Part shown: positions 8,654 through 44,397 of the stretch, piece by piece
Layout: each line of letters begins with the position of its first letter
Position numbering within the stretch: the first letter of the stretch is position 1
Assembly: GCA_011523505.1 (NCBI GenBank)
Contig: WTGP01000019.1
Location: 14,523-78,522, forward strand
Direction: 5' to 3'
DNA length: 64,000 nucleotides
From: Gammaproteobacteria bacterium
Lineage (GTDB): Bacteria > Pseudomonadota > Gammaproteobacteria > Steroidobacterales > Foliamicaceae
The notes under the pieces: model-generated
What the model saw: only the letters and a program-made list of their open reading frames with translations
What the model was told of the DNA's origin: nothing
Database searches by the model: none
Translations under genes and position numbers: made by a program

Positions 8654-9063
8654 TGCAGTTGCCTGTGTACGAACGCGGTATTGACCGGCAGCTTCGACGA
8701 AGCCAGCCGGAAGGCCTCGCGCGCCAGCGGCTCGGGCACGCCCTCGATCTCGTAGAGCATGCGGCCGGGCTGGACCAGCGAAACCCAGTATTCGACGTTG
8801 CCCTTGCCCTTGCCCTGGCGCACTTCCAGCGGCTTCTGGGTGATGGGCTTGTCCGGAAAGATGCGGATCCAGACCTTGCCGCCACGGCGCACGTGGCGGG
8901 TCAGCGCGCGCCGCGCCGCCTCGATCTGGCGGGCGGTGATGCGGCCGCGGGTGGTGGCCTTGAGGCCGTACTCGCCGAAGGCCACGAAATTGCCGCGCTG
9001 GGCCAGGCCGCGGTTGCGGCCCTTGTGCATCTTGCGGTACTTGGTGCGCTTGGGCTGCATCAT
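8650..9063 (-). CDS. rplP: 50S ribosomal protein L16
   Basis: Large-subunit protein at the A-site tRNA elbow, required for peptidyl transfer geometry. It is 137 residues (E. coli 136). Two consecutive ATG codons occur; the first (9063) gives [19 protein letters not shown], which aligns in length with the E. coli start and forms an ATGA overlap with the rpsC stop. [36 protein letters not shown] is strongly conserved. Confidence 0.98.
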
Positions 9064-9917
9064 GACGGCGTTACCGGGGTTTCGGGCGTCTCAGGGGCAG
9101 CCGGGGTTGCCGGCGTGGCAGCGGTTGCGGGCGTCGCGGGAGTCGCTGGCGTGGCCGGAGTCACGGGAGCCGCGGGGGTTGCCGGTGTCGCGGGCGTGGC
9201 CGGGGTAGCAGGCGTTGCCGGCGGCGCGGGCCTGGGCTCGGCGCCGGTCGGCGTCTCGGCGGCGCCCGCCGTATCGGTGGGCGAGGACTTCTCGCCGCGG
9301 TAGATCCACACCTTCACGCCCACCACGCCGTAGGTGGTGAAGGCTTCCGCCAGGCCGTAATCGATGTCGGCGCGGAACGTGTGCAGCGGCACGCGGCCCT
9401 CGCGGTACCACTCCGAGCGCGCGATTTCGGCGCCGTTCAGCCGCCCGGCCACCTTGACCTTGATGCCCAGCGCGCCGAGCCGCATCGTGGTGCTGACCGC
9501 GCGGCGCATGGCGCGGCGGAACATCACGCGGCGTTCGAGCTGCGAGGCGATGTTCTCGGCCACCAGCCGGGCGTAGAGCTCGGGCTTCTTGATCTCCTTG
9601 ATGTTCACCCGCACCTGGTGCAGCTGCGTGTCGATCAGCTTGGCGAGGTCGCGCCTGAGCCGCTCGATGTCCTCGCCCTTCTTGCCGATGACGGTGCCGG
9701 GGCGGGCCGTGTGGATCTGGATCTGGGTGCTCTCGCGGTGGCGCTCGATGTCGATATGGCTGACCGCGGCGTCCTTGAGACGCTTGCGCAGCATCTCGCG
9801 GATCCGGTAGTCGGACTCGACCAGCGCCGGGAAATTCTTCGAATCGGCGTACCAGGTGGACGACCACGGCCGGGAGATGCCCAGCCGGATGCCGATGGGA
9901 TTGACTTTCTGGCCCAT
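9060..9917 (-). CDS. rpsC: 30S ribosomal protein S3 with Pro-Ala-Thr repeat tail
   Basis: S3 lines the mRNA entry channel and contributes helicase activity. The first 212 residues are a standard S3: [18 protein letters not shown], the KH domain ([16 protein letters not shown], about 74-89) and the C-terminal domain ending [15 protein letters not shown]. They are followed by a 73-residue tail, about residues 213-285, first acidic/polar and then dominated by repeats of Ala-Thr-Pro. E. coli S3 has 233 residues and a short basic tail, so this protein is about 50 residues longer. The ATG at 9917 is chosen because it gives the family N-terminus three bases after the rplV stop. Confidence 0.97.
9063..9221. 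repeat. Imperfect 9-bp tandem repeats encoding (Ala-Thr-Pro)n in rpsC
   Basis: A run of imperfect 9-bp units of the type GGCGTGGCC / GGGGTTGCC on the plus strand encodes the alternating Pro-Ala-Thr tail of S3. Synonymous third positions vary from unit to unit, so the amino-acid repeat is better preserved than the DNA repeat. This suggests that slippage created it and later mutations stayed mostly synonymous. Confidence 0.85.
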
Positions 9918-12406: not shown

Positions 12407-13063
12407 CTATGCCTGTTGGGTCTTTTGGGCCGGCATTTTCACGGCGGGGCGTACCAGTACGCGGCCCATCGTGTGGCCCGGAATGGCGCCCTTGATCATG
12501 ATGAGGTTTCTCTCCTCGTCGACCCGCACCACTTCGAGGTTCTGGACCGTTCGGCGCACGTTGCCCATGTGGCCGGACATCTTCTTGCCCTTGAACACGC
12601 GTCCGGGGGTCTGGTTCTGGCCGATGGAGCCGGGCACGCGGTGGGCCTTGGAGTTGCCGTGGGTGGCGTCCTGGCCGCGGAAGTGGTGGCGCTTGATGGT
12701 GCCCGCATAGCCCTTGCCGATGGTGGTGCCGGTGACGTCCACATGCTGGCCGGGTGCGAACACGCTCACGGTGATTTCGGCGCCGGGCTGATAGTCCTCA
12801 AGCTGGGCGGGGTCGTCGAGGCGGTGCTCGAACAGGCCTTCGCCCGGGGTGTGATCGGCATACTGGCCGGCAAGCGCCTTGCCCGGGGCCTTGCGCGCCT
12901 CGCCCACGGTGACCTGCACGGCTGCGTAGCCGTCCTTGTCGGGCGTGCGCTGGCGGGTCACGCGATTCGGGCGCGCCTCGATCACGGTGATGGGCACACT
13001 GGCCCCTTCCTCCGTGAACAGGCGCGTCATTCCTCGCTTTTGGCCGATCAAACCGATGCTCAT
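12407..13063 (-). CDS. rplC: 50S ribosomal protein L3
   Basis: Early-assembly protein whose extension reaches the peptidyl-transferase centre. It is 218 residues (E. coli 209). The ATG at 13063 gives [16 protein letters not shown], the family N-terminus. A longer in-frame reading would translate through the hairpin repeat upstream and is rejected. The [38 protein letters not shown] segment contains the glutamine methylated by PrmB in E. coli. It is separated from rpsJ by 170 bases that hold a hairpin repeat. Confidence 0.98.
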
Positions 13064-13088: not shown

Positions 13089-13194
13089 GCCCTTACCAGC
13101 CCCTTTCCTCCGGGGGACGCATGAATCCATCCGTGGAGCTCTGTTCCGCCATCCATGGCTCACAAGCCCCCGGAGGAAAGGGGCTGGTAAGGGC
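13089..13194. repeat. Hairpin repeat, copy 1 (variable stem, conserved core), inside S10 operon
   Basis: A 28-bp left arm (13089-13116) is perfectly complementary to the right arm (13167-13194), enclosing 50 nt. The core ACGCATGAATCCATCC (13117-13132) and TGGAGCT (13134-13140) start directly after the left arm and recur in the copies at 31247 and 44288, while the arm sequences differ. The element fills most of the rpsJ-rplC spacer, so it must be transcribed within the ribosomal operon. It contains no ORF of its own and is not followed by a T-tract, so it is not a standard intrinsic terminator. Confidence 0.93.
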
Positions 13195-13233
13195 TAGCGG
13201 GCAAAGACTATCAATTTTAGCGATCATGGGGGG

Positions 13234-13548
13234 TTAGTTCAAGCGGATTTGGGCGTCCACGCCGGCGGGGAGTTCGAGCTTCATGAGTGCGTCGACGGTC
13301 TTGTCGCTGGGCTCGATGATGTCCAGCAGGCGCTTGTGCGTCCTGAGTTCGTACTGGTCGCGGGCGTCCTTGTTCACGTGCGGCGAAATCAGCACGGTGA
13401 AGCGCTCCTTGCGGGTGGGCAGCGGCACGGGGCCGTGCACCCTGGCGCCGGTGCGGCGCGCGGTTTCGACGATCTCTCGGGCCGACGAATCGATCAGCCG
13501 GTGATCGAAAGCCTTCAGCCGGATTCGAATATTTTGCGGTTCAGCCAT
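13234..13548 (-). CDS. rpsJ: 30S ribosomal protein S10 / NusE
   Basis: Head protein of the 30S subunit that also acts as the NusE antitermination factor with NusB. It is 104 residues (E. coli 103). The start [20 protein letters not shown], the [21 protein letters not shown] loop and the [28 protein letters not shown] segment are diagnostic. It lies six bases after a tuf stop codon, so no E. coli-type S10 leader exists upstream. Confidence 0.98.
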
Positions 13549-31246: not shown

Positions 31247-31355
31247 GCGTCCAGCCTTGCCCCCGCCTGCCGGGAGACGCATGAATCCATCCATGGAGCT
31301 TGCTCCGGCATCCCTGCCTCCAATACTCCCTGCAGGCGGGGGCAAGGCTGGACGC
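31247..31355. repeat. Hairpin repeat, copy 2 (variable stem, conserved core)
   Basis: Left arm 31247-31270 (24 bp) is perfectly complementary to right arm 31332-31355, with five further pairs after one mismatch on the loop side. The loop has the family core ACGCATGAATCCATCC (31277-31292) and TGGAGCT, followed by a small inner hairpin GGAGC-TT-GCTCC. Downstream loop sequence (GCTCCGGCATCC) resembles copy 1, while the arms do not. It lies in the divergent spacer between the tRNA promoter and the RND efflux genes. The remaining 106 bases up to 31461 show no confident promoter. Confidence 0.93.
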
Positions 31356-44287: not shown

Positions 44288-44397
44288 GCGGCCTGGACTG
44301 CCCCCTGTCTGGGAGGAGCGTCGGCGGCAGGAGCCGCCGCCGAGCCCCATGGATGGGTTCATGCGTCTCCGCCCAGACAGGGGGCAGTCCAGGCCGC
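44288..44397. repeat. Hairpin repeat, copy 3 (variable stem, conserved core, inverted orientation)
   Basis: Left arm 44288-44313 (26 bp) is perfectly complementary to right arm 44372-44397, with four more pairs after one mismatch. The family core is on the minus strand at 44366-44351 (ACGCATGAACCCATCC) followed by ATGGGGCT. An inner hairpin CGGCGGC-AGGA-GCCGCCG occupies the rest of the loop. It lies between the Gld-type ATPase start and the 3' end of the next upstream-facing gene region; both neighbours are on the minus strand. Confidence 0.92.

What the first reader, a model, noticed from the sequence alone, without database searches (positions are those of the whole stretch)
13089..13194. 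Hairpin repeat copy 1 sits inside the S10 ribosomal operon
The rpsJ-rplC spacer is normally short. Here it is 170 bases and almost filled by a 28-bp perfect stem. It must be transcribed in one of the most highly expressed operons of the cell. It would place a very stable structure about 25 bases upstream of the rplC start, and it occurs in an operon that lacks the usual leader upstream of rpsJ. It may separate rpsJ from rplC expression, serve as an RNase III site, or be a tolerated insertion.
Basis: partly seen in the sequence, partly recalled or inferred. Interest (0 to 1): 0.6.

Follow-up and report, generated by a model that had tools for sequence, protein, structure and literature searches.

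The report
Dispersed CsrA-type hairpin in rplC leader
The hairpin between two ribosomal-protein genes is one copy of a repeated RNA-like element (25 to more than 80 copies per genome in this group of marine bacteria) that carries two loops shaped like binding sites for the global regulator CsrA on a stem that keeps changing yet stays paired, so a regulator's binding site appears to have been scattered through the genome, once into a ribosomal operon.

Summary
In detail: 28 of 28 pairs, a 50-nt apical region, and a 170-nt rpsJ-rplC spacer. The local reading changes. The element lies in the leader of a predicted rplC promoter that overlaps the rpsJ stop codon. Spacers in other genera of the order are not short (158-502 nt). 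Within the genus, five closely related species have the element here (170-191 nt) and three others do not (68-80 nt), so it is a recent gain.

It belongs to a dispersed family: 25 copies in this genome, at least 82 in some sister species, and a separate expansion in another family of the order. The apex carries two ANGGAX hairpins about 22 nt apart, as in Rfam TwoAYGGAY and high-affinity CsrA/RsmE sites. GGA persists in the unselected hairpin (67/71), a related genus has exact CsrA SELEX consensus matches (8/24 copies), G-U wobbles favour one strand (20:5; 20:1), and every genome of the genus encodes CsrA. Arms change in mirrored blocks and the apex flips between orthologues, as template switching predicts.

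Against general cis-regulation: no orientation preference relative to genes (28:29). The S10 copy is most likely a tolerated insertion that may bring CsrA to the rplC leader. Binding, transcription and effect on rplC are untested.

The parts
13089..13116 (-). 3' arm of the stem (in rplC mRNA orientation)
   Evidence: 28/28 Watson-Crick pairs with 13167-13194
13167..13194 (-). 5' arm of the stem (in rplC mRNA orientation)
   Evidence: mirrored changes in orthologues
13117..13166 (-). apical region with two GGA hairpins, CTTGTGAGCCATGGATGGCGGAACAGAGCTCCACGGATGGATTCATGCGT
   Evidence: covariance model R1 hit 13103-13180 minus, 88.2 bits (this copy is among the 25 the model was built from)
13148..13159 (-). 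apical hairpin 1: GCC-AUGGAU-GGC, an ANGGAX hexaloop on a stem
   Evidence: sequence; GGA kept in 67/71 distinct 5' hairpins, in the predicted loop in 58/71 versus 18% of shuffles
13126..13137 (-). apical hairpin 2: UCC-ACGGAU-GGA; same ACGGAU hexaloop as the RsmE-bound hcnA hairpin
   Evidence: sequence; hcnA loop in PMC4005645
13237..13242 (-). predicted -35 TTGAAC of the rplC promoter, overlapping the rpsJ 3' end
13214..13219 (-). predicted -10 TAAAAT (17-nt spacer)
   Evidence: same position in all 8 genus members examined
12407..13063 (-). rplC (L3)
   Evidence: ORF; start at ATG 13063
13234..13548 (-). rpsJ (S10)
   Evidence: ORF; search
31247..31355 (-). second copy of the element (GGA strand minus); apex inverted in sister species G001
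44288..44397 (+). third copy of the element (GGA strand plus); deleted through one arm in sister species G003

Best explanation
The hairpin is one copy of a dispersed TwoAYGGAY-like RNA-hairpin family. SHOWN: a basal stem of about 30 bp carries two small hairpins about 22 nt apart with GGA-containing loops. The family has 25 copies here and at least 82 in some sister genomes. Its stem pairs covary, its apex can be inverted at one locus between species, and the S10 copy was gained in the ancestor of five closely related species, in the direction that puts the GGA strand in the mRNA. INFERRED: when the GGA strand is transcribed, the two ANGGAX loops bind one CsrA dimer. The basal stem displays the loops and is rewritten and repaired at DNA level by template switching between its arms. 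At rplC the element sits in the leader right behind a predicted promoter. It is mostly tolerated, but could tether CsrA to, or trigger RNase III cleavage of, the rplC operon mRNA.
For: Family and structure: three window copies hit by the model. Genus copy counts are 25, 58, 28, 57, at least 82, 42, at least 82, 81 and 77. For 68 stem clusters 97.4% of pairs are Watson-Crick versus 51% when partners are dealt anew; 140 double-change cells versus 38 in shuffles. Strand: wobbles 20:5 for the GGA strand in the genus and 20:1, p=2e-5, in pairs outside the model in a related genus. CsrA: the high-affinity site is an ANGGAX hexaloop on a stem, and hcnA has ACGGAU (PMC4005645); the window copy has AUGGAU and ACGGAU. 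Of 71 distinct 5' hairpins, 32 are CANGGANG and 21 CAGGA, and GGA is in a hairpin loop in 58 versus 18% of shuffles. GGA spacing is 20-23 nt against 10-63 nt for CsrA bridging. The exact SELEX consensus RUACARGGAUGU is in 8/24 copies of another genus. csrA is present in all 9 genus genomes, with a normal CsrA sequence in this one. TwoAYGGAY was predicted by others to bind CsrA (PMC4333381). RF01731 matches the elements full length in 8 of 9 genus genomes, below its cut-off. Template switching: arm homogenisation and spacer inversion are its known products (PMC8604942, PMC8794818); apices are inverted at two loci.
Against: No orientation preference relative to flanking genes (28 sense, 29 antisense), so cis-regulation by CsrA cannot be general. 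In the genus the wobble bias is strongest where the GGA strand is antisense to its neighbours (8:0), not where it is the mRNA. Predicted folds of the S10 copies partly occlude the GGAs (unpaired probability 0.3-0.95). Four of 12 element-bearing genomes searched apart from the window's relatives show no csrA hit (MAGs of unknown completeness). The element is missing at this site in three genus members, and the G003 copy has lost one GGA hairpin to an inserted hairpin. No expression or binding data.
Confidence: 0.6

Rival explanations
1. A purely DNA-level mobile palindrome (REP- or MITE-like). Copies spread by an unknown enzyme and stay palindromic by template switching. RNA and CsrA play no part, and the S10 copy is a neutral insertion.
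For: All 93 scored copies are intergenic, a median of about 30 nt from genes, enriched between convergent genes and without strand preference. Apices flip. Copy number varies from 25 to at least 82 within a genus. Near-identical core motifs occur in Gammaproteobacteria and Desulfuromonadales, with 111 copies in one genome.
Against: GGA loops persist while their stems vary; wobble bias on one strand; exact CsrA SELEX consensus in another genus; no Y1/RAYT transposase in the genus; no clean empty site or target duplication seen at three loci. A single-stranded-DNA transposase that reads the GGA strand would explain the wobble bias too.
Confidence: 0.25
2. A dedicated regulator of this operon: the hairpin sets rplC expression apart from rpsJ (attenuator, CsrA switch or autogenous leader).
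For: It sits in the predicted rplC leader, in mRNA-sense orientation in all five species that have it, with pairing retained.
Against: Absent at this site in three genus members; one of many copies of a dispersed family; no Rfam ribosomal-leader match; one of five orthologues lost a GGA hairpin and another has two mispairs in the stem.
Confidence: 0.08
3. An RNase III processing site or mRNA stabiliser, as proposed for NEMIS, independent of CsrA.
For: A 28-bp perfect helix in a transcribed leader; precedents in NEMIS (RNase III) and ERIC (RNase E) (PMC2229807).
Against: Does not explain the conserved GGA apex. Not exclusive with the best explanation. No RNA-end data.
Confidence: 0.2
4. An intrinsic transcription terminator between rpsJ and rplC.
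For: Strong G+C-rich stem; four U follow shortly after it in the window copy (GAUUUUGC).
Against: The stem is far longer than usual, with a 50-nt apex. A U-run after the stem is not general in other copies, and the S10 orthologues in G006 (GGGCUAGC) and G001 (GGUUUAGC) lack it. It would stop transcription of an essential operon.
Confidence: 0.03

Closest known systems
TwoAYGGAY RNA (Rfam RF01731, clan CL00106)
   Same: Long weakly conserved outer stem with two hairpins whose loops read AYGGAY; RF01731 matches genus copies full length at about 22-40 bits, on the same strand.
   Different: All scores are below the gathering cut-off of 43; the window copy is not matched at E<=10. Here the family is a repeat with tens of copies per genome, with a conserved UUCAUGCGU after the second hairpin.
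CsrA/RsmE-binding GGA hairpins (hcnA leader, RsmX/Y/Z, CsrB/C)
   Same: ANGGAX hexaloops on a stem (ACGGAU as in hcnA), N-less variants as in RsmZ SL3/SL4, two sites about 22 nt apart.
   Different: Those are single-locus leaders or sRNAs; here the pair of sites sits on a long variable stem dispersed between genes in both orientations. Binding not tested.
NEMIS/Correia, ERIC, RUP and other bacterial MITE-like repeats
   Same: About 107-bp intergenic hairpin repeats, some transcribed with neighbouring genes; RNase effects proposed for some.
   Different: No target duplication or related transposase seen here; stems differ between copies while the apex is conserved, the reverse of terminal-repeat elements.
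Template-switch-maintained inverted repeats
   Same: Arm homogenisation and spacer inversion between orthologues.
   Different: Cases in those papers are individual loci; here a whole repeat family shows both signatures.

Membership tests
TwoAYGGAY RF01731 | score at or above the gathering cut-off of 43 bits | tested here: not met
   Window copy unmatched at E<=10; G007 orthologue 22.8 bits; genus best 40.0
TwoAYGGAY RF01731 | two hairpins with AYGGAY loops on an outer stem | tested here: met
   AUGGAU and ACGGAU above a 28-bp stem; same architecture in the Rfam alignment
TwoAYGGAY RF01731 | tandem G-A pairs in one stem | not tested
   Feature reported in PMC4333381; not examined here
CsrA-binding RNA | ANGGAX loop directly on a stem | tested here: met
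   Both hairpins of the window copy by sequence; 32 CANGGANG plus 21 CAGGA of 71 in the unselected hairpin
CsrA-binding RNA | GGA unpaired in the predicted fold | tested here: inconclusive
   Both GGAs above 0.5 unpaired in 27 of 53 copies; S10 copies 0.3-0.95
CsrA-binding RNA | two sites 10-63 nt apart | tested here: met
   20-23 nt; range from PMC7652899
CsrA-binding RNA | CsrA present in the host | tested here: met
   All 9 genus genomes
CsrA-binding RNA | CsrA binds it | not testable with these tools
   Needs gel shift or CLIP-seq
REP/RAYT | RAYT (Y1 transposase) in the genome | tested here: not met
   0 of 9 genus genomes for PF01797; controls positive
REP/RAYT | GTAG 5' of the hairpin | tested here: not met
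   20 of 113 copies; window copy has GCTAG
MITE-like repeat (NEMIS/ERIC/RUP) | target-site duplication | tested here: inconclusive
   No clean empty site at three loci
MITE-like repeat (NEMIS/ERIC/RUP) | short intergenic hairpin in many copies | tested here: met
Intrinsic terminator | U-run right after the stem | tested here: not met
   Not general in other copies nor kept in all S10 orthologues
Ribosomal S10-operon leader | match to a described leader family | tested here: not met
   No Rfam leader match in the window or tested relatives

The most novel reading that the evidence does not exclude
A self-repairing, spreading palindrome has scattered paired CsrA-binding hairpins through whole genomes (25 to over 80 copies; 111 in one deltaproteobacterial MAG), including a ribosomal-protein leader. 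It would act as a mobile CsrA sponge or regulon builder whose sites can be switched on or off per locus by template-switch inversion of the apex.
Probability: 0.3. Interest if true: 0.82.

Novelty: new variant of a known kind. Interest (0 to 1): 0.6.

Why it matters
If true, a global regulator's binding site is itself a dispersed repeat, so CsrA regulons in these bacteria could be rebuilt quickly and CsrA could be titrated by tens of transcripts. The family also helps to separate two causes of covariation that are usually confused: DNA template switching (mirrored block changes, apex inversion) and selection on one strand (strand-specific wobbles, constant GGA). It is a warning that perfect covariation in long bacterial hairpins need not mean RNA-level selection on the stem. 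It gives the earlier prediction that TwoAYGGAY RNAs bind CsrA a large natural set of sequences on which it can be tested.

Tried and rejected
Rfam at default threshold finds only tRNAs in the window. Low-score microRNA matches (mir-3173 and others) merely reflect a long perfect stem. RAYT/REP: no Y1 transposase in the genus, GTAG in only 20 of 113 copies. Terminator: no consistent U-run. A first gene caller trained on the longest ORFs put a shadow ORF over rplC; it was retrained on the S10 operon, where all strands then came out right, and the counts were redone. The looser 'orthologous pairs' list contains many false pairs (short flanks); only the stricter list and the S10 set are used. At the S10 locus stem pairs changed on both sides (6 of 28 in several comparisons) look faster than the flanks (5-7 of 64), but the comparisons are not independent, so this is only suggestive. 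CsrA absence in four distant MAGs may be incompleteness and was not resolved. No paper linking CsrA to a dispersed repeat was found in the held library.

Full report
WHAT WAS CHECKED. The inverted repeat is real: arms 13089-13116 and 13167-13194 pair perfectly over 28 bp around 50 nt, with an RNA folding z-score of -10.5. The spacer from the rpsJ stop (13234) to the rplC start (13063) is 170 nt. tuf and rpsJ are only 6 nt apart, so there is no leader directly before rpsJ. All genes here are on the minus strand.

rpsJ-rplC spacers in other genera of the order are long, 158-502 nt, and most carry a consensus -10 (TATAAT or close) shortly after the rpsJ stop. In all eight genus members examined a promoter-like TTGAA(C/T)-N17-TAnnAT overlaps the stop at the same place. 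The window has TTGAAC-17-TAAAAT at 13237-13242 and 13214-13219. So the element most likely lies in the 5' leader of a separate rplC transcript, about a dozen nucleotides after the start, as well as in any read-through from rpsJ. This is a prediction without RNA data.

GAIN IN ONE BRANCH. Five genus members with 95-98.5% identity in rpsJ plus rplC have the element here (170-191 nt spacers). G005 (about 92-93%) and G004/G008 (about 84%) do not (68-80 nt), though they have a small hairpin at the same place. The tree is poorly resolved inside the five, but the pattern fits one gain. Between the five orthologues up to 7 of 28 stem pairs changed on both sides, some in runs of adjacent bases, with at most two non-Watson-Crick pairs in any copy. 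G003 lost one GGA hairpin to an inserted hairpin; the other four keep both GGA motifs.

A DISPERSED FAMILY. The window holds three copies. A separate expansion with unrelated stem sequence occurs in another family of the order (64 and 44 copies). The same core motif is found in Desulfuromonadales and other MAGs, 111 copies in one. Public genomes of the genus are uncultured Gammaproteobacteria MAGs; that they are sponge symbionts is my inference from isolate names.

STRUCTURE. 68 stem clusters are 97.4% Watson-Crick over 24 pairs versus 51% when partners are dealt anew. A named structure of basal stem plus two apical hairpins gives 90.4% paired cells, 140 double-change cells versus 38 in shuffles, and drops to 41-54% when slid. 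Copies were found through a motif that includes the 3' hairpin, so its conservation is selected; the 5' hairpin is not in the motif.

CSRA LOGIC. The high-affinity CsrA/RsmE site is an ANGGAX hexaloop on a stem; hcnA has ACGGAU (PMC4005645). The window copy shows AUGGAU on GCC/GGC and ACGGAU on UCC/GGA, 22 nt apart. In the unselected 5' hairpin GGA is kept in 67 of 71 distinct sequences and lies in a predicted loop in 58 (18% in shuffles); 32 read CANGGANG and 21 CAGGA, the N-less form known from RsmZ. In the other genus 8 of 24 copies carry the exact SELEX consensus RUACARGGAUGU (consensus from PMC7652899). CsrA bridges sites 10-63 nt apart; here 20-23. csrA is in every genus genome. CsrA binding had already been predicted for TwoAYGGAY (PMC4333381). 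The model RF01731 matches copies in 8 of 9 genus genomes over its full length, and besides the genus only one of ten other order genomes and none of 14 controls, but always below its cut-off, so I do not file the element as a member.

STRAND. G-U wobbles in the stems favour the GGA strand 20:5 in the genus and 20:1 in pairs outside the model in the other genus. That points to selection on one single-stranded form, RNA or ssDNA. Against simple cis-regulation, copies show no preference for the sense strand of flanking genes (28:29), with 30 between convergent and 6 between divergent genes, and in the genus the wobble bias is seen mostly where the GGA strand is antisense.

DNA-LEVEL DYNAMICS. At copy 2 the apex is inverted between G000/G007 and G001 with a closely similar stem and flanks, and at one more locus between SB0673_bin_2 and COS2_bin_9 (L060/L127). 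Copy 3 is deleted through one arm in G003. Arm homogenisation and spacer inversion are the two products of polymerase template switching in inverted repeats (PMC8604942; PMC8794818). I therefore attribute the mirrored stem changes to template switching, and the constancy of the GGA loops and the wobble bias to selection. How new copies arise is unknown.

VERDICT. Best supported: a TwoAYGGAY-like, probably CsrA-binding, dispersed hairpin, at S10 a recent and mostly tolerated insertion in the rplC leader. Shown: anatomy, family, gain, covariation, inversion, conservation of GGA. Inferred: promoter activity, CsrA binding, template switching as cause, lack of strong effect on rplC.

Noticed in passing
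L141-L150, L155, L156, L158 (rpsJ-rplC spacers of other genera in the order): Spacers of 158-315 nt with a consensus -10 right after rpsJ, a G+C-rich hairpin, and often a conserved GGCCAATCGAAGTCGG-like stem-loop just before rplC; no Rfam match in those tested. Possibly an undescribed ribosomal-protein leader.
   Followed up: partly
window 9060-9300 (-): The rpsC product carries a C-terminal extension of many TPA-type repeats (ATPATPATP...), unusual for ribosomal protein S3.
   Followed up: no
G008 C5, C25, C46, C63, C109; L103, L107: Pairs of elements about 180-220 bp apart, often head to head, in one intergenic region (BIME-like doublets).
   Followed up: no
L192 (G006), copy 2 site: A different element with another stem stands beside a remnant of the old arm, suggesting replacement of one element by another at the same site.
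   Followed up: partly
contig ends in G004, G008, G027, G040: Several copies lie within about 100 bases of contig ends, so assemblies seem to break at these palindromes and copy counts are probably underestimates.
   Followed up: no
G027/G040 (genus g18), L211-L240: Separate expansion with a different conserved stem (GGGGAG...CGCTTGAGAC) and the same double-GGA apex.
   Followed up: partly
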